Below, in pieces: positions 929 through 35,784 of a stretch of 50,657 bases of DNA (positions are counted from its first letter, which is position 1; the number at the start of each line of letters is the position of its first letter). The notes under the pieces were generated by a model, which saw only the letters and a program-made list of their open reading frames with translations, was not told the DNA's origin and searched no databases. Origin of the DNA: a virus; IMG/VR virus record IMGVR_UViG_3300027741_000095, positions 1 through 50,657 of that record; one strand, 5' to 3'. The position numbers were made by a program, and so were the translations under genes.

Positions 929-2338
929 ATGTGCGGAATACTGCTAACTACTAGGGCCAGCGAAATGCCCGAACTCTTAGATTCTATAGAACATAGAGGA
1001 ATAGAAAAATCAATGGTTGATCTTGATGGTGTTACCCTATGCCACCATAGACTTCCCATCCAGACATTAGATGGTGATGAATGGGCACAGCCTCTAGAAA
1101 TATCAGATGGAATATATTTGATGTTTAATGGTGAGATCTTTAATTATGATCAAACTAAATTTTCATCCGATACTGAGTATCTTTGTAATTTATTCTCTAG
1201 TTATAGAGGTGGAAGCGTGGAGTTCTTTAGTGCTATGTATATTCCTCATATTCAAACTTGGGATGGATTTTGGGCTATAATTATCTACAATTCTAAAACT
1301 GGTGATATTATCGCCTTTACCGATCCTCTTGGTAAGAAGTGCCTTTATAAAAATGAGCTTGGTGAGATTTGCTCAGAGATAAAAGGTCTATTTACAGGTC
1401 AAAGTGATCTTGACCAATCCTATATTAGTTCGGTTAGGAAATGGGGATATAATAAGGATGAAAGAACACCTTATCTAAACATTAAAAGACTTTTACCAAA
1501 TAACATTTATTCCTACAATATAGCGTCTCCACTTTTTAACCACATTTTCCCTAAGTATTATAGAGCTTGGGAAACCCCAATTAAAAGCTTAATAGGAGCT
1601 GATTACGAGGCTCATATGGAATGGCTTTGGGATAAAATGATAGAGAGCGTAAAGTTCCGTCTGGTGTCTAAGAACTATCCAATATCGGTGTTAGTTTCTG
1701 GGGGTCTAGATTCTTCGATCATAGCAGCAATTCTTAAACAGCTTGAATCCAAGGTAACCTGGTTTTCTATAGAAAATGGGGAATCCCAGTATGTTAAAGC
1801 ACTTAGTGAGCATTTAGAGACCCCGATTAACTTTTTAGACTACAATATGGATTCTAGCAAACTGGCAGATATTTATTGTGATTGGAACGAAGGACCTATA
1901 GATCTAGGATCTGTTATACCGCAATACCATTTATTTGAAGCAGTTAAGAAGGAAACAGGATATCGGATAGTTATTAGCGGGGACGGCTCTGATGAGCTCT
2001 TTGGCGGATATTCAAGAATCCACGAATACGACTCCCAGCAGTCTGACATTTTTGAAGAGCTTACCTATTACCACTTGCCTAGACTTGATAAAATGTCTAT
2101 GGCACATACCCTGGAGTTAAGAAATCCATTCCTGAATCTAGAAATAGTTAGATTTGCCTTGCATTTACCTATAGAATGGAGGACAGATAAAAAAATACTT
2201 AAGGACACATTTGGTCCACTTTTACCCGAATCTATATTAAACAGGAAAAAAGAGGCACTTAAAAACCCTGAAATAAAAGAGGATAGAATTAAATATAGAC
2301 AAAAAGCGGTTAATCTCTTTATAGAATCTATTAAATAA
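929..2338 (+). CDS. asnB: Asparagine synthetase, glutamine-hydrolysing (AsnB-like)
   Basis: AsnB enzymes make asparagine from aspartate, ATP and ammonia released from glutamine. The 469-residue product starts MCGI, so Cys2 becomes the N-terminal nucleophile of a class-II glutaminase domain. HRG (22-24), RLPI (41-44), NGEIFN (67-72) and DTE (81-83) fit the glutamine pocket. The synthetase half has the PP-loop SGGLDSS at 257-263 and SGDGSDELFGGY at 350-361, so both active sites look intact. It is about 85 residues shorter than the E. coli enzyme. It follows the kinase-like gene by two bases and ends a short operon. An AsnB-fold enzyme acting on another carboxylate, for example in modification of a peptide or small molecule, is the main alternative. 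Confidence 0.92.
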   Translation: MCGILLTTRASEMPELLDSIEHRGIEKSMVDLDGVTLCHHRLPIQTLDGDEWAQPLEISDGIYLMFNGEIFNYDQTKFSSDTEYLCNLFSSYRGGSVEFFSAMYIPHIQTWDGFWAIIIYNSKTGDIIAFTDPLGKKCLYKNELGEICSEIKGLFTGQSDLDQSYISSVRKWGYNKDERTPYLNIKRLLPNNIYSYNIASPLFNHIFPKYYRAWETPIKSLIGADYEAHMEWLWDKMIESVKFRLVSKNYPISVLVSGGLDSSIIAAILKQLESKVTWFSIENGESQYVKALSEHLETPINFLDYNMDSSKLADIYCDWNEGPIDLGSVIPQYHLFEAVKKETGYRIVISGDGSDELFGGYSRIHEYDSQQSDIFEELTYYHLPRLDKMSMAHTLELRNPFLNLEIVRFALHLPIEWRTDKKILKDTFGPLLPESILNRKKEALKNPEIKEDRIKYRQKAVNLFIESIK

Positions 2339-6603: not shown

Positions 6604-7194
6604 ATGCAAGAATCAATAAAAGAAAAAGTACTCTATACAGCTCCAAGATTTGATGTAATAGATAGAGATGGATATATTGGATTAAGACCTAAAGATGATT
6701 CTGTTATCATATTACCATATGTTACCGACGAAAACAATCTTCCTATATCAATAGGTGTACTCAGGGAAAGAAATAATTTTAGGGAAGGTGGATATTCTTT
6801 AACCGTAGTTTCTGGAAGGACTGATGATGATGATTCAGGATTTTTGGAAACAGCTAAAAGAGAGCTAAAGGAGGAAACTGGTTTTTCTGTTACTGAAAAT
6901 GACAAATGGTTTTTTCTAGGAACAGTTACTGCTTCAAAGATGGTTGACACAGAGCATCCATGTTTTGCTGTTAATGTTACAGGAATTAAAAGAGGAACAG
7001 CTACTACAGACGGATCTGAGAATGAGAAGCAGTCTGAATTTTTATTTATTCCTTCTAATGATGTAGTTAAAACAAAAGACGTTTTTATACCTGCGCTATT
7101 TCTAAAACTGTTTAAGTATGTTGTCGGCATGGATATGTACAACAGGGACGACTCAGTTTTTGGTAGACCTAGAGGATTTACTGCTGAAATTTAA
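6604..7194 (+). CDS. Nudix hydrolase
   Basis: Nudix enzymes cleave nucleoside diphosphates linked to another group, such as ADP-ribose, NADH, dNTPs or capped RNA. This 196-residue protein has a Nudix box: G71 opens it and the core REL-KEE-TGF is at residues 86-94, matching REUxEExGU, which binds the catalytic metal. The upstream half (GRTDDDDSGFLETAK) is one residue longer than the usual Gx5Ex7 spacing, and the first Glu is replaced by a run of Asp, so metal binding may be altered but is probably kept. A beta-rich segment precedes the box (residues 35-70), as in the fold. The start is one base after the previous stop. The substrate cannot be inferred. Confidence 0.85.
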   Translation: MQESIKEKVLYTAPRFDVIDRDGYIGLRPKDDSVIILPYVTDENNLPISIGVLRERNNFREGGYSLTVVSGRTDDDDSGFLETAKRELKEETGFSVTENDKWFFLGTVTASKMVDTEHPCFAVNVTGIKRGTATTDGSENEKQSEFLFIPSNDVVKTKDVFIPALFLKLFKYVVGMDMYNRDDSVFGRPRGFTAEI

Positions 7195-7206
7195 TTTTGT
7201 AAAAAT

Positions 7207-7506
7207 ATGAGTGGACAAATTTCTAAGAAGGAACAAAGAAGAATATTAAAACAACTTGGAATCAATATTCCCCAAAAGAAAACCATCGATGACATTTCTA
7301 ATAATATAGAGGAGGGAAAAAACAAGCATAGAATGTTTGTTCAGGAGATGAAGAATAGAGAGATTATGAAGAATGTCAATAGGGATGGGGTAAAATTGGA
7401 ATTAGATTCTTTTAAAAATTGGAATCAAGAATCCCCAGAGTATACCAGTTTTAAATCATTTATGATAAAATCAAACTGGGATGAATTGAGCGAAACCGAA
7501 GAATAA
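7207..7506 (+). CDS. Small unknown helical protein
   Basis: A 99-residue, strongly charged protein of unrecognised family. Residues 5-60 look like one or two helices rich in Lys, Glu, Arg and Ile (KKEQRRILKQLGINIPQKK, then a Met/Lys/Glu-rich stretch). The C-terminal third has aromatic residues (FKNWNQ, FKSFMIKSNWDEL) and ends acidic. It lacks any membrane segment. It is 12 bases after the Nudix gene and two bases before the next gene, inside the same operon. A nucleic-acid-binding or assembly-adaptor role would be compatible, but nothing specific can be read from it. Confidence 0.68.
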   Translation: MSGQISKKEQRRILKQLGINIPQKKTIDDISNNIEEGKNKHRMFVQEMKNREIMKNVNRDGVKLELDSFKNWNQESPEYTSFKSFMIKSNWDELSETEE

Positions 7507-7508
7507 AA

Positions 7509-7841
7509 ATGCCCAAAAAGCAAATATTTAACATCTACTTATCTAAAAATTCTCCCAAAGAGTCTAGGAAAAAACCACGCATTAAAAAGCTGGACCCTTA
7601 TATTGTAGACATCTCTAAAATAATAAGGGATCTTGGATACGAAATAGATAATCTAGCAACAGAATCAGAATTTATATTAAACTACACTATTCGTAAGAAA
7701 ATTGTTCAGGGAATATATAGTACGAAGTGTGATAGCATGCTTATTTGCTATAAGAACATAACCCCTGAATTTGAAAGTAATTTGGAGAACTTCTTATCCG
7801 AATTACCAAAAGAGGAAGAGTATGCTATCCACCGACTATAA
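7509..7841 (+). CDS. Small unknown protein before the tail block
   Basis: A 110-residue protein of unrecognised family. A basic N-terminus (SKNSPKESRKKPRIKKLD) precedes an alpha/beta-looking body of about 75 residues (IVDISKIIRDLGYEID, then a strand-turn-strand around VQGIYSTKCDSMLICYKN) and a final acidic helix. It starts two bases after the preceding stop and is the last small gene before the tail/baseplate block, with an 18-base gap. In tailed phages small proteins at this point are often assembly chaperones or neck components, but there is no sequence support for either here. Confidence 0.68.
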   Translation: MPKKQIFNIYLSKNSPKESRKKPRIKKLDPYIVDISKIIRDLGYEIDNLATESEFILNYTIRKKIVQGIYSTKCDSMLICYKNITPEFESNLENFLSELPKEEEYAIHRL

Positions 7842-7859
7842 AAAATAGTGATGGATTAA

Positions 7860-9671
7860 ATGATAGAAGATCTTCTCCGGGAACAGATACTCAAGACTGA
7901 CTCCAATACTTTAATTTCCAAGTATAGCAATATTGGTGCGAATCCCATTAAGAGAGAGACCGCTAAGTCGCTATTCTATGAAGCAGGAAAGAGGAACCCT
8001 GCAAAATATGGTCAATTTCTTTTCTACTCTCTAGGAAGCTACGAGAATGATTTTAAAAACGCTTATTATAGATCAGAATCCGTTTCTTTTAATAAGTCAA
8101 TTTCTTCTATAGCATCAAAGAACCCCTCTGCAGGAATGCTAGTTAAGGAAACGATGTCTAACGAGTCAGTTGCTTCGCAAAACACTGGAAACTTAAGTGG
8201 GATAGTTTCTTCAACTACATATATTGGTAATATTATAGGGGGACTTTCCGCACCCTATTACTGGAAGGATTTTCTTTATTGTAAATACTATGGATCTATT
8301 CCTAATAATTACATGATAACGTTAAGAAGATTCCCAACTCCAGTTTTGGACAATATGTCTATCCCTGCAGCATTAAAAGATAATGAGGCTTATATAACGG
8401 AGGGGGTCGGAAGACCTGTCGCCCAGGCAATAACTTGGTTTGGTGGAAATACTGGAAACTCCCTTTCGGGTATACTCAGTTTTACTACTGGATTAAAATG
8501 GCTTCCAGCAACACAAGAGGAGATAAAAAGGCAAGAGGCATTTTCTAAAGGTCTTTTTACTGGTGATCAGGGTATAGGCCCAATGTCATTTATAGGATCC
8601 ACGTTAGATAAGATTAGTCCACAGGTAAAAAACATCTATGATGCGGGTAGAAGCATAGTTGAGGGTTTGACTATAGCTACTGATCCTAACGAAACAGTAA
8701 CTAAAGCTAGACGAACAAGAGCACTTAGAGATAAATCTAAGGATTTAGGTGGTGTGATGAGTGAATATATTTGGACGTCAGTTGACGTAGTTACAACAAC
8801 ACAGGTAAGAGCCACTGGACTTCCTTTCACCTGGAATGATATCGTTTTGGTCTTTGATTATGATCTAACCTCCGTTGGTGAGGTAAACTCAAAAGCAGCT
8901 ATGCTGGATATTTTAGCAAATCTTCTTTCAATAGGAACAAACTATGGAAATTTCTTAACCCCTGATATTCGATACCAAGCAGACACCCCCGCAATCGCAT
9001 TCCCTGGAGGAGACAGAGGCCTTGAACTGTATTATTCGAATCCCATCAAATGGTTCACAGACTTTGGTAATAAACTTGCCGATGCTACAACAAAAACTTT
9101 AAACGATCCGGAATCAAATGCAGTCGACGATGTAAGAGCAAAACTTTCTAATCTTCTCCTCGAGGGTGGAAACGATCCAGCAAAATTTGTCGATCAAATA
9201 AAGCAATTCGAAAACACACTAGGTACTGCAGCTGGAAGATTGATAAAACTTTCGGTATCAGGGGAGCTTACTGACAATTATAGGGCGCCATTGTCTCTTT
9301 TAACTGGTGCACCAGTGGGAGAATGGCACGTAACTGTTGGTAATCCTTGTAACCCTATTGCTATGATTGGAAATCTTGTTTGCGATGGGGTTAAAATAGA
9401 ATTTACTGAATCGCTTGGACCTGATGATTTTCCAACCGGAGTAAAGGCGACGTTTACGTTAAAGCATGGAAGGGAGAGGGAGAGAGGTGAGATAGAAAGT
9501 ATCTTTAATAGAGGTGACGGTAAACTTTATCAATCTGTATTAAAGACCTCTGCTAATGCACAATCTTTTGCATCAACTGGAGATGTGAACGGAAACGTAT
9601 TATCAGAAGCCACCAAGAATGCTTATTTGGACGGTCAAAGTTGGCAAAAAATTCCTCCGGGTGGGGGTTAA
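7860..9671 (+). CDS. Tail-tube initiator-like baseplate protein (gp48/gp54-type, putative)
   Basis: This 603-residue protein opens the baseplate block. The last 120 residues hold the recognisable part: GEWHVTVGNPCNPIAMIGN (from about residue 488), then SLGPDDFPTG and TFTLKHGRERERGEIESIFN. This looks like the tube-fold domain of proteins that join the tail tube to the baseplate hub, where it would act as a ring for tube polymerisation. The N-terminal 250 residues contain several glycine-rich hydrophobic stretches (GNIIGGLSAPYYWKDF) and aromatic motifs (NYMITLRRFPTPVLDN). The next genes are LysM-like, hub and spike proteins, which supports the call. Assignment to gp48 rather than gp54 or another baseplate protein is inference. 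Confidence 0.6.
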   Translation: MIEDLLREQILKTDSNTLISKYSNIGANPIKRETAKSLFYEAGKRNPAKYGQFLFYSLGSYENDFKNAYYRSESVSFNKSISSIASKNPSAGMLVKETMSNESVASQNTGNLSGIVSSTTYIGNIIGGLSAPYYWKDFLYCKYYGSIPNNYMITLRRFPTPVLDNMSIPAALKDNEAYITEGVGRPVAQAITWFGGNTGNSLSGILSFTTGLKWLPATQEEIKRQEAFSKGLFTGDQGIGPMSFIGSTLDKISPQVKNIYDAGRSIVEGLTIATDPNETVTKARRTRALRDKSKDLGGVMSEYIWTSVDVVTTTQVRATGLPFTWNDIVLVFDYDLTSVGEVNSKAAMLDILANLLSIGTNYGNFLTPDIRYQADTPAIAFPGGDRGLELYYSNPIKWFTDFGNKLADATTKTLNDPESNAVDDVRAKLSNLLLEGGNDPAKFVDQIKQFENTLGTAAGRLIKLSVSGELTDNYRAPLSLLTGAPVGEWHVTVGNPCNPIAMIGNLVCDGVKIEFTESLGPDDFPTGVKATFTLKHGRERERGEIESIFNRGDGKLYQSVLKTSANAQSFASTGDVNGNVLSEATKNAYLDGQSWQKIPPGGG

Positions 9672-10289: not shown

Positions 10290-11849
10290 ATGTCATTAGA
10301 GGATATCCAAATAGTAACTTTAGCTTTAAACAATATCAAATTGGATGAACAGGTCCAAGTAGATAGAAGAAAGAACCCAGACGATCTACAGAAAGAAAGA
10401 GATGATGGATTTGTAGTCGAAAAGAATATAGGTCTTTATGTTCCCTTTATAACCATTAATGGATATAGTGTTACTAAATATTTAAAAAAGTTTGATCTGA
10501 ATCTAGATGGATTTTTGCCCATTGTAAAATTTACTTTCTATGCACTAGAAAGTGTTTTTATTTCTGTGAATTACCCAAAGGATGGTGATATAGCTTCTGT
10601 TTACATGAGATCACCTGGGGATTACTATAAACCATTTAGAATGGATTTTAGTATTCTCTCTGTGAATAGTGAGCCTTCAAGTGTGATGGACCCCAGCGGG
10701 AAAGATGCCGAAGGCAGAGGTAAAAATTTAAAATTCACCATTATGGGTGAATGTAGAATCCCTGGACTCTATACTAATCGAATTAAATCATTTAGAGACG
10801 TTACCTCTTCTGAATGCTTGCTCCAGGTTTCTCAGGATTTAAACTTAGGATTTTCCACAAATGACAGGACCTTAAATGACAAGATGACTTGGATATGTCC
10901 ATCATATTCATATTATGATTTTATACAAGAGGTTTCTTTGCGTGCTTACAAGGACGACGAAAAAAGTTTTTTTGATTGCTGGATAGATTGCTATTATAAT
11001 CTCAATTTTGTTAATCTTGGCTCACAGTTTGATTATGGTGATCCACCTCAGCAAATTGCAGTTTACCTCCCCGGATATGTTGGAGGAGGCTATCAAGCTA
11101 GTAATGAATATGCTGCAACCCCAGATCCTGGACCTGTTCAAGGGCCTTTAGTTTTAACTAATCTTAGTGGGTATGGAACAATTCCTTATTTTATAATTGG
11201 ATATACCTTGACTTCTAGAAGTGGTCTTAACACTAATCAAATGGGATATGTTAATCAGATAGGATTTTATGATGAACACGCGAAAGAAAAAAATCTTTCT
11301 AACAAATACATAAAATATGATATAGAATCACAGACGCCAGAGAAGATTGGAATAGACGCTATTCTTCAGAAAGGTAGAGCTAGAGATAATTCTTATAAGG
11401 AGGAAAAGAGAATAGAATGGCTTGGTGTTTTAAATTCTAAAATTTCACCAAGTGATGGAGTACATCCTAATTTTATTCATGCGAAGTTTCAAAATCTAAT
11501 CAACATAAATGATGCAACTAAAATGACATTAGTTGTTGAATTAGAAAACTATTTTCCTGGAATCTATAGGGGTCAAGTGGTTCCTGTTCAAATTTATGTT
11601 AGTGAAACTGGGCTCAGACAACAGAATGCTGGTAATCAGAGTAATAGAGAAACGAATGACATCCCCTCGCCGGTTCAGGATTTATTTCTTTCTGGTAATT
11701 ATGTTGTTATTGGGGTGAGTGTTTATTGGAGTTATTCGGGTGGAAGAATGAGACAGTCTTTAACTTTGGCCAAGAGGGTTTGGAATGCAAATAGCTCAGG
11801 TGCCCTACCTAAAGCATTTCCAATATCTCCAACGAGGGATTTATTTTAA
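10290..11849 (+). CDS. Baseplate hub protein, gp27-like (putative)
   Basis: A 519-residue protein placed where contractile-tail phages encode the hub. Residues 50-110 look like a hub beta-barrel (VPFITINGYSVTKYLKKF). Residues about 173-192 (SECLLQVSQDLNLGFSTND) match the segment of gp27/gpD/VgrG-type proteins in which a helix precedes a Leu-Gly-Leu/Phe turn. The stretch YDFIQEVSLRAYKDDEKSFF continues the pattern of the second barrel. In this family a trimer adapts the hexameric tube to the trimeric spike. The gp5-like OB protein lies downstream, but the giant repeat gene comes in between, which is unusual. The family call rests on pattern and order. Confidence 0.6.
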   Translation: MSLEDIQIVTLALNNIKLDEQVQVDRRKNPDDLQKERDDGFVVEKNIGLYVPFITINGYSVTKYLKKFDLNLDGFLPIVKFTFYALESVFISVNYPKDGDIASVYMRSPGDYYKPFRMDFSILSVNSEPSSVMDPSGKDAEGRGKNLKFTIMGECRIPGLYTNRIKSFRDVTSSECLLQVSQDLNLGFSTNDRTLNDKMTWICPSYSYYDFIQEVSLRAYKDDEKSFFDCWIDCYYNLNFVNLGSQFDYGDPPQQIAVYLPGYVGGGYQASNEYAATPDPGPVQGPLVLTNLSGYGTIPYFIIGYTLTSRSGLNTNQMGYVNQIGFYDEHAKEKNLSNKYIKYDIESQTPEKIGIDAILQKGRARDNSYKEEKRIEWLGVLNSKISPSDGVHPNFIHAKFQNLININDATKMTLVVELENYFPGIYRGQVVPVQIYVSETGLRQQNAGNQSNRETNDIPSPVQDLFLSGNYVVIGVSVYWSYSGGRMRQSLTLAKRVWNANSSGALPKAFPISPTRDLF

Positions 11850-11885: not shown

Positions 11886-14800
11886 ATGTCAGCAACAGAT
11901 AAACAAAGGAGTCTCTTTTTAAAAGGGTTTAAACTTTCTAAACAGGGAAATTATGAGGACCCAACATACCTTGGGTTTAAAGTTGTTTTTGATTTTGGTG
12001 TTTTACCTGTTGATCCTGATGACGGTCTGCCTCCTAGTCCTCTTTTAAAAAAAGAAAACTATTTAACAGGAGCGGATCTTAGTAGTTTTGCTGCCAGAAA
12101 TCCATTCAGCCAGCCAATGTACGAATTTAAAACACCAGGACCTGCTGGAGAAATCTCATTCTACTCAGCAAGCGGATATTTAGCTGACAGAGAGGATGGA
12201 TTTAGAACAGGAGGAAAAAGATCGGATATGCTTCTTCAATTTCAGGAAACGCTGCGAGATCTTGTTGACAACTACCCTTGGTTTTTACAATCGATTACTG
12301 GGCTTGATGCCTTAGCTAAAGTTACCAGAGGTGGATTTCCTGACGATTCCGCTTCTAATTTTAATCCACAAAGAACTGCAGGAAAAGTCCTGGAATTTAA
12401 AACATTAGAATCTTTAAATCTAAGAATAACCGCATTAGCTACTCTATACAATCAAGCCACTTTTGATTATGATAATATGAGAGAGCTGGTACCTAGAAAC
12501 CTCAGAAGATTTATGATGTATATCTTTGTTACGGAGATAAGAAATTTCTTTAAAACTTCTAGACTTATAGGGTCCTCTGCTACACTCAAAACAATAGACA
12601 ACCTATCAACACTTCTTGGCAATGCAAAAAATCCAGGAACTTCTCTTGGAGCGGAGGAAGCTGCAGCAGGACAGAATCAACAGTATGGAGTAGGGGGAGG
12701 AACAAATCCAGCTAATCCATTTAACTCTTTTGTCGGAGGTATTTTAAATACAGCTGGAGTTAATAACGATTTAGCTGCCTTTAAAAATCAACAGGATCAG
12801 TCTGGGATCAAACCCGTTATTGTTTTTGAGTGTAGAAATTGCGAATTTGATTTCAGTGAAAGTACTCCAGTCCAAAATATAATGACACCAGGAACTATCT
12901 CCCCTGATATAGTGACACAGGGATTCAAAATACATGTTGGTCGTGTTAGAATGAGATCGCAGTTTCCTAATATTAGACTAGACGGAAATCCTTTAATACT
13001 TGGGGATAGCTGGGACGGATCAAGATCGTCTGTTCAACAAGCACCAAAAGCACCAAACCCCAAAACCGGACTACAAGGAATACTTGAACTTGGAAAGGAT
13101 CTATTGACAAATTTTATAGGTAACTCTCTAAATGATTTGATCAACGAGGGGGTTTCATCCATTACTAGATCTCTATCTGGTGTAGATCGAACCATTTTAG
13201 GAAATGCCTATAATTTTAATACTGCTTTACTGAATGGAAATAATCTTTCTTTTAATAATGCTCAAAACTTCTTGCAGGGTCTAGGCGGTGGAAACTCAAG
13301 GTTGGCTGGACCACAAGGGGGAGGACTGGGTGGACCTCCTCAAAGAGCATACAATAGTCCAAGTGGTGATGAATATCCAACATCACCCGGTCAAGATCTC
13401 GGAGTTCCTCAAAGAGTTTACCCTACTGTCAGGGATGATGCTTATAGATCTTCTCCAGGGGCAGATCTAGGATTACCAACAAGAGCTTATCTATCACCAG
13501 GTGGAGATGAATATCCAACAGTTCCTGGTCAGGATCTGGGATCACCACAAAGGGTTTATGTAAAACCAACAGGGGATGCATATCCAAACTCACCTGGTTC
13601 AGATTTAGGCCTTCCAACAAGGGCATATCCATCACCTGGCGGTGACGAGTATCCAACAGTTCCTGGACAGGATCTTGGATCACCACAAAGAGTTTATGTA
13701 AAACCGACAGGTGATGTCTATTCAACTTCACCAGGATCAGATTTGGGCCTACCAACAAGAGCTTATCCATCTCCTGGTGGCGACGAGTATCCAACCGTTC
13801 CTGGGCAGGATCTTGGATCTCCCCAAAGGGTTTATCAAACCCCATCAGGCGACGTTTATTCAAACAGTCCAGGTAATGATCTGGGTGTTCCTAGCAGAAT
13901 TTATGGATCCCCAGGTGGTGATGTATATCCAACAGTTCCAGGTAAAGATCTTGGAGCTCCTGAGAGAGTCTATCAAGATCCTCAAGGAGATGTTTATTCA
14001 AACAGTCCAGGAAGAGATCTAGGTCTTCCTGACAGGGCTTATCCTGAAGCTTCTGGTGATGCTTATACCGGAGTTCCTGGAGCTGATCTAGGGATTCCTG
14101 ATAGGATTTATAACAATCCATCTGGTGATGTTTATTCAGCATCTCCAGGACAGGATCTAGGTGTTCCAGATAGAGTTTATCAAGTAGCATCAGGTGATTT
14201 ATATCCAACATCACCAGGAGAAGATTTAGGTGTTCCTGATAGGGTTTATCAAACCCCTTCAGGAGATGTCTATTCCAATTCTCCTGGGAGTGAATTAGGT
14301 CTTCCTAATAGGATATACGAATCTCCAGGTAATCGAGATGCTTATCCGGAGGTACCTGGAGATTCTCTAGGTGTTCCCAATAGAATATACCCGACACCGT
14401 CGGGAGATGTTTATTCAAATTCGCCAGGTAGGGATCTTGGATTACCTAACAGAGAGTACAATTTACCTAATGGTGATGCTTATCAAACCGTTCCTGGCGA
14501 TGATCTTGGAGTTCCTAATAGGGTTTATCCAAATCCTGCTGGTGATGTTTACCAAAATTCTCCTGGCCCTGATTTAGGACTTCCTGGTAGGGTTTATGCA
14601 CCCACTGAGGGAGATGTATACTCTAAAGTTCCTGGAGAAGATCTGGGTGTCCCTGGTAGAGTTTATCCAACCACATCAGGCGATGTTTACTCAAAGTCAC
14701 CAGGCGAAGATCTTGGACTTCCTAATAGAATTTATGGGTCATTGAATGAGGATATGTATTCTAAAGTTCCAGGGGAAGATCTAGGAGCTCCTGATAGAGT

Positions 14801-17800
14801 TTATCAAACTCCTTCTGGAGACGTCTATCCAAATAGCCCAGGGGAAGATCTAGGACTTCCGAATAGGGTTTACAAATCTCCAGAAGGCGATGCATACTAT
14901 AAAGTTCCAGGAGAAGATCTAGGGGTTCCTGATAGAGTTTATCAAGCACCTTCTGGCGATGTTTATCCAAACAGCCCTGGAAGGGATTTGGGGGTTCCTA
15001 ACAGACTATACGGTCAGCCTTCCGGGGATCTTTATACGAAGTCTCCAGGAGAAGATCTAGGGGTTCCTGATAGAGTTTATCAAGCACCTTCTGGCGATGT
15101 TTATCCAAACAGCCCTGGAAGGGATTTGGGGGTTCCTAATAGATTTTACGGATCTCCAAACGGTGATGCATATCCTAAAGTTATTGGTGATGATCTCGGG
15201 GTTCCTGATAGAGTTTATCAAGCACCTTCTGGCGATGTTTATCCAAACAGTCCAGGTAGTGATCTATCACTTCCAAATAGATTCTACGGATCTCCTGGAG
15301 GAGATGTATACCCTAAAGTTCCTGGCGACGATCTTGGTTCTCCTGAGAGAATTTATCCTAAGACTACTGGTGACTCCTATCCAAATAATCCAGGGAATGA
15401 TCTAGGTGTTCCTAATAGATTATATAGCCAGCCCTCTGGAGACGTATACCCTAAAGTTCCTGGCGAAGATCTTGGGGTTCCTGATAGAATTTACCCAAGA
15501 ACATCTGGAGATGTTTATTCAGATAGCCCGGGAAGAGATTTGGGCGTTCCGAATAGACTATATGGTGGACCAGAAGGCGATGCTTATCCTAAAAACCCAG
15601 GTGAAGATTTAGGTGTTCCTGATAGAGTTTACCCGACCACATCCGGTGATGTCTATCCGAACAGTCAAGGAAAGGCCCTTGGTTTGCCTAACAGATTTTA
15701 CGAATCCCCTGATGGCGACGTCTATTCTAAAGTTCCAGGTGATGATCTTGGTGCTCCAAATAGAGTTTATCCAAGAACTCAGGGCGACGTTTATCCTGAT
15801 AGTCAAGGAAAGGCTCTTGGGGTTCCTAACAGATTTTACGAATCACCTTTCGGAGACGAGTACTCTAAATCTCCTGGTAAGGATCTAGGAGTCCCTGGTA
15901 GAATTTATCCGAATATTTTCGGAGATGTGTATCCAAATTCTCCTGGGGATGATTTAGGACTACCCTCTAGAGCGTATCCTTCGTCTACTGGTGATGTTTA
16001 TTCTAAAGTTCCTGGAAATGATCTTGGAGTTCCTGATAGAGTATATGGTAAAACTTCAGGAGATGTTTACCCAGAAAATCCAGGGAAAGACTTAGGACTA
16101 CCATCTAGAACCTATACTCAATCAACAGGGGATGAGTATCCTAGAGTCACTGATAACAATACTGGATCGCCTCTTGAAAGTGTGTATTTCAGAACACCAG
16201 TTGACGTTTACCCAGAAACCCCCGGCAAAAATTTAGGAGTTCCAAATAGAGCATACCCTCCGTCTTCAGGAGACGAGTACCCTAAAGTTCCTGGAAATGA
16301 TCTTGGAGTTCCTGATAGAGTATATCCAGGAACGCCAGGCGATATTTATCCAGAAACCCCAGGTAAAGATTTAGGAAACCCTGATAGGGTTTATAAATCA
16401 CCATATGGAAATGAATATCCTAAATCCAATGTTGATGGTACAATATCTCCAGAAAAAGTATATGATAAAATCTCAGGTGACTTTTATCTAGAAACACCAG
16501 GTAAAGATTTAGGTGTTCCTAGTAGATTTTACGGATCTCCCGGTGGAGATGTATATCCTAAAGTTCCTGGCGATGATCTTGGAGTTCCTGATAGGGTATA
16601 TCCTAAAACTTCTGGCGATGCTTATCCAAATAGAACAGAAAAGGATTTAGAGATCCCGAATAGATTTTATGAAACCCCCGGTATAGACTCATATCCTAAA
16701 GTTCCTGGTGATGATCTCGGTGTTCCTGATAGGGTATATTCTAAAACTTTTGGTGATGTTTATCCAGGATCACCAGGAAATGATCTATCGGTTCCTAATA
16801 GAGTTTATAAATCTCCAGAGGGTTATGAATATCCTAATGTTCCTGGTGATGCTCTTGGAGATCCTAATAGCGTATACCCTAAAACTTTTGGTGATGTTTA
16901 CCCAGAAACCCCGGGTAAAAATTTAGGTGTTCCTAATAGAGTTTATAAATCTCCAGAGGGTGATGAATATCCTAATGTTCCTGGAGAAGATCTAGGATCT
17001 CCTGATAGGGTATATTCTAAAACAACTGGGGATGTTTATCAGGATAGCCCAGGAAAAGATCTAGGATTACCTTCCAGAGCTTATCCCGGAATAAATGAAA
17101 AAGTGTATCCTGAATCGAGAGGAGGAAATTCTGATCCTATTGAAAGCGTGTATTCCAGAACACCAGGAGACGTTTATACAAATATTCCAGGAAAAGATCT
17201 GGGATTACCTGATAGAGCTTATCCAGGAATAAACGAAAGGGCATACCCTAAAAATACAGAAGAAGGTTTTGATAAATTTAAAAGCGTGTATTCCAATATA
17301 CAAAACTCAGATGTATATCCAACACATCCAGGGAAAGATCTCGGAAAAGAGAAGTCTAATTATGGGGCAGGTACAGATTTAAACCAGCAAGAAATTTTTG
17401 GTAGTATTTATAGAAATTCAAATCCAATAATGGATTCAAATACATCCAGTCTCGGAGCGGGAAGCTATGGTTCTACTTACAAGAATGAATACGACAGCAA
17501 TTCACTAAATACCCCTGGTGTTTACGATCAAAAATTATATTCGGATCCAGCTAAGGGATTAGGATCTAATCCGGTATATTCACAGCAGAGACCTGATCTT
17601 GATATGGGCAACCCTTTAAATACTTTTAATAACGAGCCTCCAGGGACAGTGTATCCTCCAACGCCTTCTATCTCTTCATCCAGAGTAAGAGGTGATCTTG
17701 GAAGGGATTATCCGCCAGTATCTGGAGATTTTTTAATGGAACCCCCAATAAATTTAGGGAATCTAAAACCACCTGATAAATATAATATTAGCACAGGAGG

Positions 17801-17831
17801 ACTTAATACTCCTAAATCTAAATTTGAATAA
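11886..17831 (+). CDS. Giant hub-associated protein with 58 tandem 23-residue repeats
   Basis: A 1981-residue protein in three parts. Residues 1-489 are globular; the section around FECRNCEFDFSEST, followed by FKIHVGRVRMRSQFPN (about residues 315-360), resembles a tube/hub-type beta domain, so this part may be a gp54-like baseplate protein. A Gly-rich linker (about 465-485) leads to 58 units of 23 residues (490-1826), built on GDVYPNSPG and DLGVPDRVY. The last 155 residues are decayed repeat-like sequence. Pro, Gly, Asp and Tyr dominate the array; there are no long hydrophobic segments, so it is not a typical tape measure. Its place between hub and spike suggests an attachment to the tail tip. 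A beta-solenoid, an extensible fibre or a disordered tether are all possible. The stop is two bases before the spike gene. Confidence 0.85.
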   Translation: MSATDKQRSLFLKGFKLSKQGNYEDPTYLGFKVVFDFGVLPVDPDDGLPPSPLLKKENYLTGADLSSFAARNPFSQPMYEFKTPGPAGEISFYSASGYLADREDGFRTGGKRSDMLLQFQETLRDLVDNYPWFLQSITGLDALAKVTRGGFPDDSASNFNPQRTAGKVLEFKTLESLNLRITALATLYNQATFDYDNMRELVPRNLRRFMMYIFVTEIRNFFKTSRLIGSSATLKTIDNLSTLLGNAKNPGTSLGAEEAAAGQNQQYGVGGGTNPANPFNSFVGGILNTAGVNNDLAAFKNQQDQSGIKPVIVFECRNCEFDFSESTPVQNIMTPGTISPDIVTQGFKIHVGRVRMRSQFPNIRLDGNPLILGDSWDGSRSSVQQAPKAPNPKTGLQGILELGKDLLTNFIGNSLNDLINEGVSSITRSLSGVDRTILGNAYNFNTALLNGNNLSFNNAQNFLQGLGGGNSRLAGPQGGGLGGPPQRAYNSPSGDEYPTSPGQDLGVPQRVYPTVRDDAYRSSPGADLGLPTRAYLSPGGDEYPTVPGQDLGSPQRVYVKPTGDAYPNSPGSDLGLPTRAYPSPGGDEYPTVPGQDLGSPQRVYVKPTGDVYSTSPGSDLGLPTRAYPSPGGDEYPTVPGQDLGSPQRVYQTPSGDVYSNSPGNDLGVPSRIYGSPGGDVYPTVPGKDLGAPERVYQDPQGDVYSNSPGRDLGLPDRAYPEASGDAYTGVPGADLGIPDRIYNNPSGDVYSASPGQDLGVPDRVYQVASGDLYPTSPGEDLGVPDRVYQTPSGDVYSNSPGSELGLPNRIYESPGNRDAYPEVPGDSLGVPNRIYPTPSGDVYSNSPGRDLGLPNREYNLPNGDAYQTVPGDDLGVPNRVYPNPAGDVYQNSPGPDLGLPGRVYAPTEGDVYSKVPGEDLGVPGRVYPTTSGDVYSKSPGEDLGLPNRIYGSLNEDMYSKVPGEDLGAPDRVYQTPSGDVYPNSPGEDLGLPNRVYKSPEGDAYYKVPGEDLGVPDRVYQAPSGDVYPNSPGRDLGVPNRLYGQPSGDLYTKSPGEDLGVPDRVYQAPSGDVYPNSPGRDLGVPNRFYGSPNGDAYPKVIGDDLGVPDRVYQAPSGDVYPNSPGSDLSLPNRFYGSPGGDVYPKVPGDDLGSPERIYPKTTGDSYPNNPGNDLGVPNRLYSQPSGDVYPKVPGEDLGVPDRIYPRTSGDVYSDSPGRDLGVPNRLYGGPEGDAYPKNPGEDLGVPDRVYPTTSGDVYPNSQGKALGLPNRFYESPDGDVYSKVPGDDLGAPNRVYPRTQGDVYPDSQGKALGVPNRFYESPFGDEYSKSPGKDLGVPGRIYPNIFGDVYPNSPGDDLGLPSRAYPSSTGDVYSKVPGNDLGVPDRVYGKTSGDVYPENPGKDLGLPSRTYTQSTGDEYPRVTDNNTGSPLESVYFRTPVDVYPETPGKNLGVPNRAYPPSSGDEYPKVPGNDLGVPDRVYPGTPGDIYPETPGKDLGNPDRVYKSPYGNEYPKSNVDGTISPEKVYDKISGDFYLETPGKDLGVPSRFYGSPGGDVYPKVPGDDLGVPDRVYPKTSGDAYPNRTEKDLEIPNRFYETPGIDSYPKVPGDDLGVPDRVYSKTFGDVYPGSPGNDLSVPNRVYKSPEGYEYPNVPGDALGDPNSVYPKTFGDVYPETPGKNLGVPNRVYKSPEGDEYPNVPGEDLGSPDRVYSKTTGDVYQDSPGKDLGLPSRAYPGINEKVYPESRGGNSDPIESVYSRTPGDVYTNIPGKDLGLPDRAYPGINERAYPKNTEEGFDKFKSVYSNIQNSDVYPTHPGKDLGKEKSNYGAGTDLNQQEIFGSIYRNSNPIMDSNTSSLGAGSYGSTYKNEYDSNSLNTPGVYDQKLYSDPAKGLGSNPVYSQQRPDLDMGNPLNTFNNEPPGTVYPPTPSISSSRVRGDLGRDYPPVSGDFLMEPPINLGNLKPPDKYNISTGGLNTPKSKFE
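14906..15001 (+). repeat. Exact 96-bp direct repeat, first copy
   Basis: These 96 bases are identical to 15044-15139, an offset of 138 bp (two units). The sequence covers parts of units 23-24 and 25-26, encoding QAPSGDVYPNSPGRDLGVPN in both. Identity at silent positions points to recent duplication or gene conversion rather than protein-level selection alone. Confidence 0.93.
15044..15139 (+). repeat. Exact 96-bp direct repeat, second copy
   Basis: Second copy of the 96-bp repeat. A third, shorter exact match of 53 bases follows at 15198-15250, again 138 bp on (matching 15060-15112), so two successive duplications of a two-unit block can be read here. Confidence 0.93.
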
Positions 17832-17833
17832 AA

Positions 17834-18535
17834 ATGCCAAGTGAAAAAACATACCTGGGTTCAGTTGTAGATAACAAGGACCCGCTTTATGAGGGAAGAG
17901 CCAGAGTGAGAGTCTTCGGAGTTCTTGATGATATTCCTGTTGAAGATCTTCCTTGGGCAGAGCAAATCTCTGGTCTTTCTTTTGGTGGAAATGGCGGAGG
18001 GGGTAACCTTTCTATACCTAGAATTGGAGCTGTGGTTGGTGTACATTTTGAGGAGAATAATTATTATAAAATGAACTATCAATCGATTAAGGAGATCTCT
18101 GATGATCTTTTATCTGAGCTCAAAGATGATAATTCTTATGAGGGTACGCAATCACTTATATACGATTCTGAAGCTCGACCTGGTCCACTTAAAATGATCT
18201 ATACACGTAGGAAGGGATTGGTATTTCAATTAGGGGAGGCAACAATACAACTAGATACTCAAAACGCAAAAGATGGATCTGAAAATCTTAGGATTGTTCT
18301 GAAAATGAACGACGATGAAATCCGCATGGAGAGGAAGAACGGAAAACAAACAGTTATTGTTAATAGCTCTAGCATAGAGCTTGGAGAAAATGCAATCGAG
18401 AGGTTAGTCCTTGGAGATTCTTTTATGAAGCTTTTTAATTCACACACTCATAAAACTGAAACTGGAGAAACTGAATCTCCTTCTCAAAAAATGGAAATAA
18501 TTGCTCACCTTAGTAGAGTTTCCAAATCTAAATAA
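17834..18535 (+). CDS. gp5: Baseplate spike protein with gp5-type OB fold
   Basis: A 233-residue protein starting two bases after the repeat gene. Residues 5-70 show the gp5/gpV/VgrG OB-fold pattern: YLGSVVDNKDPLYEGRARVR, VFGVLDD, LPWAEQ and a Gly-rich turn before IPRIGAVVGVHFEENN. Residues about 130-195 are strand-rich (IQLDTQN, LRIVLKMNDDEIRMERKNG, VIVNSSSIELG) and look like the triple-stranded beta-helix that forms the piercing needle. The motif NSHTHKTETGETESP near residues 200-215 is typical of spike proteins of contractile tails. There is no lysozyme domain between OB fold and needle, unlike T4 gp5, so cell-wall cleavage, if any, must be by another protein. It would trimerise on the hub. 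Confidence 0.85.
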   Translation: MPSEKTYLGSVVDNKDPLYEGRARVRVFGVLDDIPVEDLPWAEQISGLSFGGNGGGGNLSIPRIGAVVGVHFEENNYYKMNYQSIKEISDDLLSELKDDNSYEGTQSLIYDSEARPGPLKMIYTRRKGLVFQLGEATIQLDTQNAKDGSENLRIVLKMNDDEIRMERKNGKQTVIVNSSSIELGENAIERLVLGDSFMKLFNSHTHKTETGETESPSQKMEIIAHLSRVSKSK

Positions 18536-18617: not shown

Positions 18618-19778
18618 ATGAGTTTTAATCTAGCAGAAGATTTCGATTGGACGCTACCAAACAAAAGAGCGGTTAATGCAAAAATTAAAGCCCCAGAGGG
18701 GTCAAGAGTTTATTCCCATGAAAAGTATGCTCAAGATTTGAGCAATTTATACTTTAGTGGGGTTTCTTATGAATTTGATAAAATAGGGAAAGACCTTAAA
18801 GATGGTGAGGTTTATCCATGTAAAATCACAAACATGAACGAGACTGAAGCATTGGCTCAGACTTCGGCAGGCCAGACGATTTATATAGACCTAAGAAAAG
18901 AGAGAAGAGATGCCGCTAAATTAAATTTAGAGGAGATAGACTTTCAAGTTGGAGCGGAATTTAAAGCTAGTGTTAGAAAAGTAGGAAGCAGCTATTTTGG
19001 CTCCGTTATTGATTTCTATATGCATAGTATCAGAGACGAATTCTTTGCACAAATCAAAGAAGGATCTCATGCATACAGAGCTAAAATAGAAAGTATAAAT
19101 AAAGGTGGCTATATCGCAAGCATTTCAGGAATAAAATGTTTCCTTCCTGGATCATTAGCTGCGGCAAACAGAATTACAGATTTTGAGTCTTATATAGGAA
19201 AGGAACTTCCTGTTATGATCGAAGGTTATGTTGACGCAAAAGACATCTTTATTATCTCTTATAAGAAATACTTAAATAAGATCATGGATTCTAAAATACA
19301 GGAGCTTGATCTTACTAAAAAATATAAAGGATTCGTTACAGGAACCAGCGACTTTGGAGTATTCGTAGAATGGGAAGAAGTTTACACTGGTCTAATCCAT
19401 AAAACTGAATTTGAAAATGATTCTAGAGTTACCTCGTTTATACCTGGTGATGAAATAGAATTCTATATCAAAGAGATAAAGGAAAATAACAGATTAACTC
19501 TAACTTTAGAAAAACCACTAGAGAAGAATGTAATCCTACAAGAGCTTGAGACAAAGATAAAAGACGGAGACTGCGAGTCATTTGAGGCTAGAATTAAGCA
19601 CTTAAGAAAAAATGGAATTCTTGTTGAATTAATAGCTCTTGGTCTTATGGCACTAATACCTCAAGATAGAGTCGGTAAGAATAACAGAGGATTCAAACCT
19701 GGTGATTCCCTGACAGTTTCACTTTATGAAGTTGAGGTCAATGCAGGAAAAATATTTGCAGAACCAGTAAATGAGTAA
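18618..19778 (+). CDS. S1-domain RNA-binding protein (ribosomal protein S1-like)
   Basis: A 386-residue protein with several S1 OB-fold modules. The clearest is the third (about 232-302): YKGFVTGTSDFGVFVEW, then TGLIHKTEF and GDEIEFYIKEI, a standard S1 pattern. The second (about 148-217) contains YRAKIESINKGGYIASISG and KCFLPGSLA. The fourth (about 314-384) has FEARIKHLRKNGILVEL and ALIPQDRVG, and a diverged first one lies near 62-100. Ribosomal S1 brings mRNA to the 30S subunit; a phage copy could favour phage messages, a sensible target in a host that rarely uses Shine-Dalgarno pairing. Its length is between a transcription-factor single-S1 protein and full S1. The next gene overlaps its end by eight bases. 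Confidence 0.85.
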   Translation: MSFNLAEDFDWTLPNKRAVNAKIKAPEGSRVYSHEKYAQDLSNLYFSGVSYEFDKIGKDLKDGEVYPCKITNMNETEALAQTSAGQTIYIDLRKERRDAAKLNLEEIDFQVGAEFKASVRKVGSSYFGSVIDFYMHSIRDEFFAQIKEGSHAYRAKIESINKGGYIASISGIKCFLPGSLAAANRITDFESYIGKELPVMIEGYVDAKDIFIISYKKYLNKIMDSKIQELDLTKKYKGFVTGTSDFGVFVEWEEVYTGLIHKTEFENDSRVTSFIPGDEIEFYIKEIKENNRLTLTLEKPLEKNVILQELETKIKDGDCESFEARIKHLRKNGILVELIALGLMALIPQDRVGKNNRGFKPGDSLTVSLYEVEVNAGKIFAEPVNE

Positions 19779-34000: not shown

Positions 34001-35125
34001 AGCTCAGAGGGGTTTGGTGTAACTGGTGGATTTATAGAAAATGGTCTAACCGCGGGAGCTACTGCAGAGATCTATTCCACTAAAACTGGAACTTCCTATT
34101 ATATAACAACTGCTTTTGGTCCGACTGCATCTTATTTTGGAGCTAATGTTAATAGTTGGTCTGTTGGAACTGGGGGCAATCCTATAAAAAGAGCAATAAC
34201 TGCACAAATAACAGAACAAGCTTCAGTGAGAAGAATATTTTCATTCGATCTTGGTGAGAGCTATAACGGTGCACCATTTTTAAAAGATGCGAGAATTCTT
34301 TCTAATGGTCAATATTTTATGAGTTATTCTAATTTCAATTCCACCAAAACTAAGTATGTAACAAATATAGTTAAAACGGACACTAAAGGAAATATATTAG
34401 ATTCAAACAATTTTGGAACTAGATCTATAGACTTGATTTTTTCAACATCTAAGAGTTCTGATATTTATATGACATCTAGTTCATATGGGACAACTGGAGC
34501 AGGAACTGGTTTCATCTCCCCAATTTATCCAGCATACTTTACACTTAAATCTGAACAATATAAACCTGAACTTGGGATAAACCTTGGAAACATTATATCC
34601 CGCCCGGGCTCGGGAGCGTGGACCTGGTGCGACGTGCACTCGTCCAATAATCATCTAGAAATTCCTCTTATGTCTACTGTTGTTTTTAACAACTATTCTT
34701 CTGACATATATGGTAAGAAGAATAATGTTTGGATTCTTTCAGATTCGCTCACAGGTGAAGAAATACTTAATGTTAAATCTACTCCTTACTTTATATACAC
34801 ATTTACTAAGAGTGGATATTACCAAATATACAATCAGGTTGAGGATTCTTTTGGGAATGTTTACGAAGCATCACTACCTGGATTTATCCAAGTTATTGAT
34901 CATAAAAACAAAAGACCTGATGACAATAATCCTAATTTTGTTGATTCAACTGATTATGGATACCCTGAACCTTCCTTCGTTAGTAGAGATTATGATGTGA
35001 GAAAATTAGAGGATGATCTTATGGTTCAAGAAAAAGAGATTCTCGAGAATAACAGAATTCAATTTGGTGTTGAAGTTGTTATTCCCGATAATCCTGATGC
35101 TACGTTCGATTCTGAACCTGCTTAG
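31076..35125 (+). CDS. Giant tail/fibre protein with Reg_prop-type beta-propeller
   Basis: A 1349-residue protein. Its first 360 residues carry propeller-blade motifs: DEDGNLWIGTDIGLSYFNG near residue 244 is a textbook Reg_prop (two-component regulator propeller) blade, and RRFNGMSWEYYG, ETLWCGVAQG, YYIGTKEGLYVFP and GSLWVLGYNTLASFEY look like other blades. Reg_prop domains occur mainly in Bacteroidota hybrid sensor proteins that bind polysaccharides. Residues 450-1200 are Gly/Ser/Thr-rich beta domains with short Thr-Gly turns; a PKD-like domain may lie near 1230-1285 (YFIYTFTKSGYYQIYNQVED). The C-terminus is acidic and helical. A receptor- or glycan-binding fibre is the best guess. Its stop codon overlaps the stop of the minus-strand PhoH gene by four bases. 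Confidence 0.7.
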   Translation: MPTANLYINQIDVDNEFYVWGSGQDIRRFNGMSWEYYGYQNSAVPQPNGSPYYLDTRCLSIDNEETLWCGVAQGVESGYNQVAVFNIDTNNPEIGNSWKFSDLGTFDVQQEISLIYACPFGDDILAFCSPLNGTGLTAAASTYSRIQGSTGGRLFYYLKEIDRWYEEVEGYIWPHIYDIKTKGVDGKSYLYYIGTKEGLYVFPQGSLSTISLNDGTKIIKQATVYNTKTSGIISDTVYSLDFDEDGNLWIGTDIGLSYFNGVSFWNYGTTGPVTLVKARKNGHVFYSKGDGELSQGTGIWHFNGTSHTQFNSSNSSLSSDNVLGIELVGDNIGQNSFDVRAGSLWVLGYNTLASFEYDVPHVYASSKYSGATGWNFVYYSPTGGASPSPIPKVNKYTWTYPEWRVYQNDELEYKHPGLDPRNLFLTTKLSDIADGRAGEQAYWNNYPIPTYDQDLLINKIQSPKWITQLNPNIGNDYEFKITSSATLTINGSNRLYIGGKIAQNKSINFGSYNDGTPLTITGTNGFNINSTDTGVSYTGFVVSYDDCGCVKSSITFNGSSTEVTSIKPSPDGNSIVLAGTYNLLIENGSYVYSGLASAVTGYSNGPSGAPLGITNSGLTGATSGAYPWIYSATGATGSKYTNGAVSSLTYRYSPGNSATSGNCDFLIPTGATAGSFGSVSTILLNETQYTSVSAYSYLDNLPFRYAMTIGTAASPSLYGYYSILSGYKEIIATKTRFVFQVSFQSGSGSTSIPTTSDLVFNVYTYSNKTFPLIPSLSSLLSNTVLSSKQAPGVFVAEVEKDLGEITSFTGITGGYNESIRKSYRVINFRSFPSTSIWSGSYDSSSVTCDVTDYTVNVLIPHYNKLSTLKNLWLRNNDSYKSPEYLTDLTFDWRFLSCLSLNRDDFSIRSGINSASNQDLFYNDHTLSISSLNTGSSLITGYLPYIIPYVPPAFNFGGTDLTSSSGYESQPYYILVSSEGFGVTGGFIENGLTAGATAEIYSTKTGTSYYITTAFGPTASYFGANVNSWSVGTGGNPIKRAITAQITEQASVRRIFSFDLGESYNGAPFLKDARILSNGQYFMSYSNFNSTKTKYVTNIVKTDTKGNILDSNNFGTRSIDLIFSTSKSSDIYMTSSSYGTTGAGTGFISPIYPAYFTLKSEQYKPELGINLGNIISRPGSGAWTWCDVHSSNNHLEIPLMSTVVFNNYSSDIYGKKNNVWILSDSLTGEEILNVKSTPYFIYTFTKSGYYQIYNQVEDSFGNVYEASLPGFIQVIDHKNKRPDDNNPNFVDSTDYGYPEPSFVSRDYDVRKLEDDLMVQEKEILENNRIQFGVEVVIPDNPDATFDSEPA

Positions 35126-35784
35126 TCGTTTAAAACTTTAAGAATTTCTTCTACTATTGGATCTCTGTGATTTGTTTTAAGAGATATAACAGAAACACCT
35201 TCAACAAAACTTAGTTTTTTTGATAACCAGTCGAATCCGCTTAGCCTTTTGTCTTTTAGATCTATTTGTGAGTTATCACCAACAAAAACCATTTTAGCAC
35301 CTACACAAAGCCTGGTTATAATTAGCTCTAATTGATTTTGAGTGATATTTTGAGATTCGTCTATAACTACACAACAATCAGAGAAATTTCTACCCCTCAT
35401 AAAGCCAATAGGTATAACCTCTATATTTCCTTCTGAGATCTCTTTATCTATTTTTTCTTTATTGTACAGCATGTACATGTTGTCATAGATAGCAGCTGTG
35501 TATGGAGCTAATTTAGCGTCTTTGTCGCCTGGCAGAAATCCAATTTCCTCACCAGCGGTAACTGCAGGCCTGGTAAGTATTATTTTTTTAACATCTTTTT
35601 TAAAGAGTAGATCCAAAGCTATCTGAGCTGCTAGTAGTGATTTACCGCTACCTGCTTGACCCTTTAGAAAGGATACTTTTGATTGCAATATCTTCTCCTT
35701 AGCCGCTTTTTGTTCCTCATTTAAGGTGATATTAAACCTTATTGAATTTTTTGGCTTTTTTGGCTGGTTTTGCATAGGTGACAT
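35122..35784 (-). CDS. phoH: PhoH-like ATPase
   Basis: PhoH proteins are RecA/helicase-like ATPases often found in phages, with RNA-linked roles proposed but not settled. The 220-residue product has Walker A GQAGSGKS at residues 42-49 and the family block IILTRPAVTAGEEIGFLPGD at about 69-88. Walker B VVIDESQN follows near 137-144, then QLELIITRLCVGAKMVFVGD and a final TNHRD. This is a complete PhoH ATPase core with only a short N-terminal extension, so a stand-alone phage PhoH. It is inverted relative to its neighbours and converges tail to tail with the propeller gene. Its ATG follows a 206-base divergent spacer with hairpins. A short motif (GATATATT, minus strand, 35836-35843) may be its promoter. 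Confidence 0.93.
   Translation of the reverse strand: MSPMQNQPKKPKNSIRFNITLNEEQKAAKEKILQSKVSFLKGQAGSGKSLLAAQIALDLLFKKDVKKIILTRPAVTAGEEIGFLPGDKDAKLAPYTAAIYDNMYMLYNKEKIDKEISEGNIEVIPIGFMRGRNFSDCCVVIDESQNITQNQLELIITRLCVGAKMVFVGDNSQIDLKDKRLSGFDWLSKKLSFVEGVSVISLKTNHRDPIVEEILKVLND

What the first reader, a model, noticed from the sequence alone, without database searches (positions are those of the whole stretch)
13353..17363. 58 tandem copies of a 23-residue Pro/Gly/Asp/Tyr motif inside a baseplate-hub gene
Directly seen: 58 units (55 of 23 codons, 3 of 24) fill 1337 residues of a 1981-residue protein. Known: hub and spike genes are usually adjacent in contractile tails; here this gene lies between them. 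Inferred: the N-terminal 489 residues anchor to the tail tip and the array forms a solenoid, an extensible tether or a disordered spacer. As a one-unit-per-coil beta-solenoid at about 0.48 nm per coil it would be near 28 nm long; disordered, it could reach much further. I know of no described family with this unit, but could not search. It is the best candidate here for an undescribed component.
Basis: partly seen in the sequence, partly recalled or inferred. Interest (0 to 1): 0.88.

Follow-up and report, generated by a model that had tools for sequence, protein, structure and literature searches.

The report
Baseplate protein with expanded peptide-motif tail
A gene in the tail-tip cluster of large phages, probably of Bacteroidota, encodes a probable tail-tube-like baseplate protein whose floppy C-terminal tail carries a short peptide motif repeated 5 to about 58 times; related phages have one copy, or arrays of unrelated repeats, at the same spot, which suggests a many-sited binding tail of unknown partner.

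Summary
In detail: ORF 11886-17831 (1981 aa) holds 53 strict plus 5 degenerate 23-residue units, and shuffled sequence gives none. The reading is partly right. The gene does lie between a hub-like gene and the gp5-like spike gene, in nearly all relatives. But the N-terminal domain looks by fold like a tail-tube protein (T4 gp19/gp48/gp54 type), which points to a baseplate ring or initiator and not the hub itself. The array is not unique: 64 distinct relatives have the same unit, 5-16 copies in all but two. The window and its nearest relative L002 are extreme expansions (about 58 and 36-45). The array has one origin. A nearby phage group carries a single proto-unit (EDVYPNVPGTDL), and other lineages evolved unrelated 16-20-residue arrays in the same tail. 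Ten unit positions are 89-100% conserved while synonymous codons are saturated, so specific residues are selected, which argues against a passive spacer. AlphaFold gives no fold for the array; no Pfam, PHROG or NCBIfam family covers the protein. No tail gene scales with the array, which argues against a ruler. Best reading: a disordered, multivalent linear-motif tail on a tube-fold baseplate ring protein, partner unknown. New variant of a known kind.

The parts
11886..17831 (+). whole gene, 1981 aa
   Evidence: open frame; identical in the 141-kb contig G001; gp5-like gene directly downstream in 66 of 68 representative loci
11886..13346 (+). N-terminal domain, residues 1-487; core about residues 20-220 and 310-375, probable tail-tube fold
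   Evidence: AF2 mean pLDDT 70.6, core above 90; Foldseek to tail tube and baseplate tube proteins; 73 diverse relatives aligned
13197..13211 (+). LGNAY motif (residues 438-442), version of the family-wide LGN[VI][YFH] motif at the end of the N-terminal domain
   Evidence: sequence; family consensus LGNVYG; only LGN[VIA][YFHN] match in this protein
13347..17216 (+). array, residues 488-1777: 53 strict units of consensus VYPxPxGDVYxxVPGxDLGVPDR plus degenerate slots; two-unit superperiod
17217..17363 (+). two last degenerate units, residues 1778-1826
17364..17681 (+). degenerate tail with spaced VY/VYP motifs, residues 1827-1932
   Evidence: sequence; similar degenerate stretch in relatives
17682..17828 (+). 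conserved C-terminal cap RGDLGRDYPPVSGDF..NLGNLKPPDKYNISTGGLN, residues 1933-1981
   Evidence: present with variation in the array-bearing relatives printed; consensus in A2
10290..11849 (+). 519-aa gene, probable baseplate hub, directly upstream
   Evidence: family member directly upstream in 62 of 70 loci; one member matches a PHROG 'baseplate hub' at 8e-4; weak
17834..18535 (+). 233-aa gp5-like spike gene with an OB domain
   Evidence: phrog_430 E 8e-18; PF04717 below cut-off
7860..9671 (+). 603-aa conserved tail gene, member of the syntenic block
   Evidence: family member about 2 kb upstream in 54 of 70 loci; no family match

Best explanation
The protein is a baseplate component with a tail-tube fold, of the T4 gp48/gp54 kind (a ring between hub and tail tube), carrying a long C-terminal tail. 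The tail is a mostly disordered, multivalent array of one short binding motif (core GDVYPxVPGxDLGxPxRVY), closed by a conserved C-terminal cap. Each motif probably docks weakly and interchangeably on a partner in or near the baseplate, for example as an added strand on a neighbouring ring subunit, like the C-arm known from some tail tubes. Copy number then tunes avidity or reach, not length measurement. Shown: synteny, unit conservation, single origin, variable copy number, a single-copy proto-unit in a nearby clade, a separate tail tube gene. Supported but weak: the tube fold (structure comparison only). Inferred: disorder, the docking mechanism and the partner.
For: N-terminal fold: Foldseek finds, after its own unnamed family, 'Baseplate tail tube protein' (E 1.6e-3, prob 0.99) and many gp19-type tubes; the top PDB hit is the phi-Kp24 inner tube. 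A separate gp19-type tube gene exists in the same genome. Synteny hub-like gene / this / gp5-like in nearly all loci. Units: ten positions at 89-100% conservation while codons at these positions are about as varied as genome-wide, pS 0.63 against pN 0.31. Copy number 5-16 in all but two of 64 distinct relatives. The 23-residue clade is monophyletic, and the large expansion is confined to L001+L002. The proto-unit is present once in L165 and L162 and partly in L196 (p 0.003 each), placed near the array clade. Shorter relatives end in the LG..[VI][YFH] motif, 37 of 64 against 5.3 expected. AF2 does not fold the array. Composition lies on the disordered side of the charge-hydropathy line.
Against: No partner is known and no assay was run. 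PDB fold hits all have E above 0.09 with low TM-scores, and profile comparison with the phage's own tube protein finds nothing. Low pLDDT from 27 sequences in a single chain does not prove disorder; the array could fold as an oligomer. The strict unit length of 23 in one clade is more regular than many linear-motif arrays.
Confidence: 0.5

Rival explanations
1. The array folds, perhaps only as a hexamer or trimer, into a solenoid or filament that extends from the tail tip as a fibre or tether.
For: Strict 23-residue period and strongly conserved Gly, Pro, Tyr, Asp and Leu; two-unit superperiod.
Against: AF2 gives pLDDT about 30-40 and no regular secondary structure over the array. Other clades use different unit lengths (16, 17, 19, 20) at the same place. 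Composition is disorder-like.
Confidence: 0.17
2. The array is a tape measure or part of one: an extended chain in the tube lumen whose copy number sets tail length.
For: Tail-tip location and large variation in copy number; no tape measure was recognised by family search.
Against: Relatives in cultured phages have almost no tail, e.g. PTm1, 401 aa in all. Between the window's phage and G003 the other syntenic tail genes keep length ratios of about 0.85-1.15 while this one is 2.59. The array is not helical.
Confidence: 0.08
3. The array is an exposed adhesive or shielding brush at the tail tip that binds the host surface, its copy number following host variation.
For: Repeat expansion in a tail-tip gene; independent arrays in several lineages.
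Against: Motif residues are kept across distant phages with no sign of diversifying positions, unlike receptor-binding parts; candidate fibre genes lie separately downstream.
Confidence: 0.15
4. Neutral or nearly neutral repeat expansion of a disordered spacer.
For: Very wide copy-number range; tandem arrays arise repeatedly in this tail.
Against: Ten positions stay 89-100% conserved at saturated synonymous divergence; no array-bearing relative falls below 5 units.
Confidence: 0.08

Closest known systems
T4 gp48 and gp54 (baseplate rings on which the gp19 tail tube polymerises; PMC3004832, PMC8718954)
   Same: tail-tube-like fold by structure comparison; encoded in the baseplate cluster next to hub-like and spike genes
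   Different: no detectable sequence similarity; this family carries a disordered C-terminal motif tail or array; ring position not shown
C-arm of the 80-alpha tail tube protein gp53 (PMC8718954)
   Same: C-terminal extension of a tube-fold protein, the proposed docking mode
   Different: one ordered arm, no array; docking is only inferred here
Uncharacterised homologues in Tenacibaculum phages PTm1 and pT24, Flavobacterium phage MaF61 and Chryseobacterium phages MA9V-1 and MA9V-2
   Same: same N-terminal domain; in PTm1 directly upstream of the annotated 'baseplate hub subunit and tail lysozyme'
   Different: about 370-435 aa; no array in the three read (PTm1, MaF61, MA9V-2); PTm1 ends in a single DLGNVYN
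Moraphages (large aquatic phages of probable Bacteroidota hosts, PMC12619734)
   Same: similar size, habitat and predicted host; a DnaK-like gene
   Different: membership was not tested; that paper mentions no disorder in the passages searched and its one 'repeat' mention was not read

Membership tests
T4 gp48/gp54-type baseplate tube initiator | tail-tube fold | tested here: inconclusive
   viral library: Baseplate tail tube protein E 1.6e-3, prob 0.99; PDB hits are tubes but E at least 0.09
T4 gp48/gp54-type baseplate tube initiator | distinct from the major tail tube protein of the same phage | tested here: met
   separate phrog_45 tail tube gene in G001
T4 gp48/gp54-type baseplate tube initiator | encoded beside hub and spike genes | tested here: met
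   62 of 70 and 66 of 68 loci; the hub label itself is weak
T4 gp48/gp54-type baseplate tube initiator | sequence homology to gp48/gp54 or tube families | tested here: not met
   no PHROG, NCBIfam or PDB sequence match; no profile match to the phage's own tube protein
T4 gp48/gp54-type baseplate tube initiator | hexameric ring between hub and tube | not testable with these tools
   no multimer prediction or cryo-EM
Tape measure protein | long, largely helical protein | tested here: not met
   array 15% Pro and 14% Gly, no helix in the model
Tape measure protein | length follows tail length | tested here: inconclusive
   no other tail gene scales with the array; tail lengths unknown
Known protein repeat family (Pfam, NCBIfam, PHROGs) | match to a curated model | tested here: not met
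   no Pfam or NCBIfam match; the PHROG matches in the array are short, weak and of unknown function
NHL/Pizza beta-propeller | about 40-residue propeller blades | tested here: not met
   phmmer E 6e-6 only to designed Pizza proteins; unit is 23 aa, Pro-rich, not folded by AF2; judged a composition match

The most novel reading that the evidence does not exclude
A family of tail-tube-like baseplate proteins in which one C-terminal docking peptide has repeatedly and independently been multiplied into disordered multivalent arrays of different units (23, 16, 17, 19-20 residues; 5 to about 58 copies), a kind of tunable linear-motif scaffold not described in a contractile tail.
Probability: 0.4. 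Interest if true: 0.75.

Novelty: new variant of a known kind. Interest (0 to 1): 0.56.

Why it matters
It would give contractile tails a component type not usually considered: a baseplate ring protein with a selected, copy-number-variable linear-motif tail. The evolutionary series (single motif, short array, about 58 units, plus unrelated arrays in other lineages) makes it directly testable what multiplying one docking motif does to tail assembly or host contact. It also gives a probable place to an unannotated gene family that sits beside the spike gene in many large environmental phages.

Tried and rejected
Pizza/NHL propeller match of the array: designed proteins only, wrong unit length, no fold predicted; rejected as a composition match. 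PHROG hits inside the array: short, unknown function. First AF2 job with 27 close relatives: N-domain poor, replaced by 73 diverse relatives. Repeat consensus against phage records, and the array of L004 against plasmids and 84,980 bacterial and archaeal genomes: no match; the first two use a low-complexity filter and the last a pattern scan with tblastn confirmation, so this is weak evidence of absence, with no sign of host mimicry. Other ORFs of G001, G002 and G003 with the repeat: none. Tape measure search among the genome's ORFs: none identified. Profile comparison of the N-domain with the 603-aa family: no relation. L277 was first miscalled (the wrong ORF was taken) and left out of the later analyses. 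Literature searches for phage tail repeat or proline-rich arrays: nothing.

Full report
OBSERVATION. The ORF 11886-17831 is open for 1981 codons. Two hundred shuffles of the array residues gave no unit. No exact repeat of 100 bp or more lies in the array and the 141-kb contig G001 carries the identical gene, so a mis-assembly is unlikely; whether the two records come from independent samples was not tested. The consensus is VYPxPxGDVYxxVPGxDLGVPDR, with a two-unit superperiod.

RELATIVES. The N-terminal 489 residues find 39 loci in viral contigs at 53-100% identity, and a profile reaches 164 relatives on contigs up to 434 kb. Sixty-four distinct complete proteins parse to 5-16 strict units in all but two: L002 with 36 and the window with 53. 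An earlier HMM count gave 45 for L002 and 58 for the window (that count includes spurious hits). The relatives printed in full also share a degenerate stretch and a conserved C-terminal cap. Distant homologues in cultured phages of Tenacibaculum, Flavobacterium and Chryseobacterium have no array; the PTm1 homologue lies directly upstream of an annotated 'baseplate hub subunit and tail lysozyme' and ends in DLGNVYN. The host of the window's phage is therefore probably a member of the Bacteroidota (inference).

PLACE. Among representative loci clustered at 66% identity, a gp5-like gene follows directly in 66 of 68, a 519-aa hub-like family precedes directly in 62 of 70, and a 603-aa family lies about 2 kb upstream in 54 of 70. 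The hub label rests on one weak PHROG match. The same genome has a separate gp19-type tail tube gene.

N-TERMINAL DOMAIN. With 73 diverse relatives AF2 gives mean pLDDT 70.6 and above 90 over much of the core. Foldseek against viral models finds ten members of the same uncharacterised family, then a 'Baseplate tail tube protein' at E 1.6e-3 and many tail tubes. Against the PDB the leading hits are tail tubes, but with E of 0.09 or more and low TM-scores. Sequence and profile searches find nothing. So the tube fold is probable, not proven. T4 gp48 and gp54 are the natural comparison because they sit between hub and tube and form the platform for tube polymerisation (PMC3004832, PMC8718954).

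ARRAY UNDER SELECTION. Across 54 window units, Y2, G7, D8, Y10, P14, G15, L18, G19, P21 and R23 are 89-100% conserved and D17 85%. Synonymous codons at the ten positions are about as varied as in the rest of the window (somewhat less at P14, P21 and R23); D17 is the exception, with GAT in 45 of 46. Mean pS is 0.63 and pN 0.31. The units are therefore mostly old and their key residues maintained. The unit list was chosen by a profile, so the conservation figures are slightly inflated, but nearly every slot from 488 to 1777 was included. A few recent two-unit duplications exist: exact repeats of 80-99 bp near 14906 and 15044, and most window units are closer to another window unit than to any unit of L002 (37 of 45).

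ORIGIN. In the N-domain tree all 18 array-bearing representatives form one clade (reported node support 0.72), and L001+L002, the two extreme expansions, are sisters (0.98). L165, L162, L196 and L198, placed near the array clade, carry one proto-unit; the match is significant at p 0.003 for the first three (the floor of 300 shuffles) and 0.013 for L198 (57 proteins tested, no correction). Elsewhere in the tree the same tail carries unrelated tandem repeats: 16-residue units in the 1021- and 1212-residue proteins L261 and L265, 17 in L205, 19 in L192, about 20/40 in L193 and L246, 16 in L238 and L241. Many short members end in LG..[VI][YFH], 37 of 64 against 5.3 expected by shuffling. That motif pattern was written after looking at the ends, so the excess is descriptive.

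STRUCTURE OF THE ARRAY. AF2 of a complete 777-aa relative gives pLDDT about 30-40 over the array and no regular secondary structure. The composition is rich in Pro, Gly, Asp and Tyr and falls on the disordered side of the charge-hydropathy boundary. This fits disorder but does not prove it.

RULER TEST. Between the window's phage (G001) and a relative with few units (G003), syntenic tail genes keep length ratios of about 0.85-1.15 while this gene is at 2.59. No tape measure was identified in either genome, so this is an argument, not a proof.

CONCLUSION. Best reading: a tube-fold baseplate ring protein with a disordered multivalent linear-motif tail whose copy number has expanded strongly in one lineage. 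The partner of the motif is unknown. Function is inferred; no experiment bears on it yet.

Noticed in passing
window 18618-19778 (+): 386-aa protein with S1 RNA-binding domains, similar to 30S ribosomal protein S1 but far below the curated cut-offs, inside the baseplate cluster; same length and 62% identical in G003.
   Followed up: partly
window 929-2338 (+): 469-aa asparagine synthase with a glutamine amidotransferase domain, same length in G003.
   Followed up: no
window 35122-35784 (-): PhoH-like ATPase on the opposite strand among tail genes.
   Followed up: no
window 24745-50407 (+): Run of long, Ser/Thr/Asn/Gly-rich genes, probably fibres or other tail parts; the last (48623-50407) has collagen-like and tail fibre matches.
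   Followed up: no
L261 and L265: 1021- and 1212-residue homologues with long arrays of a different 16-residue unit (NADLTGAQPLKDLVPS) in the same tail.
   Followed up: partly
L126 about 6931-8805 (-): DnaK-like gene in the same phage (N-terminus MAKVIGIDLGTTNSCV), a feature reported for moraphages (PMC12619734); membership not tested.
   Followed up: no
L129:10225-12219 (-): Head maturation protease match in a 664-aa protein with a long repetitive helical stretch (YxEYLAENxDxxIxY) after the protease part.
   Followed up: no
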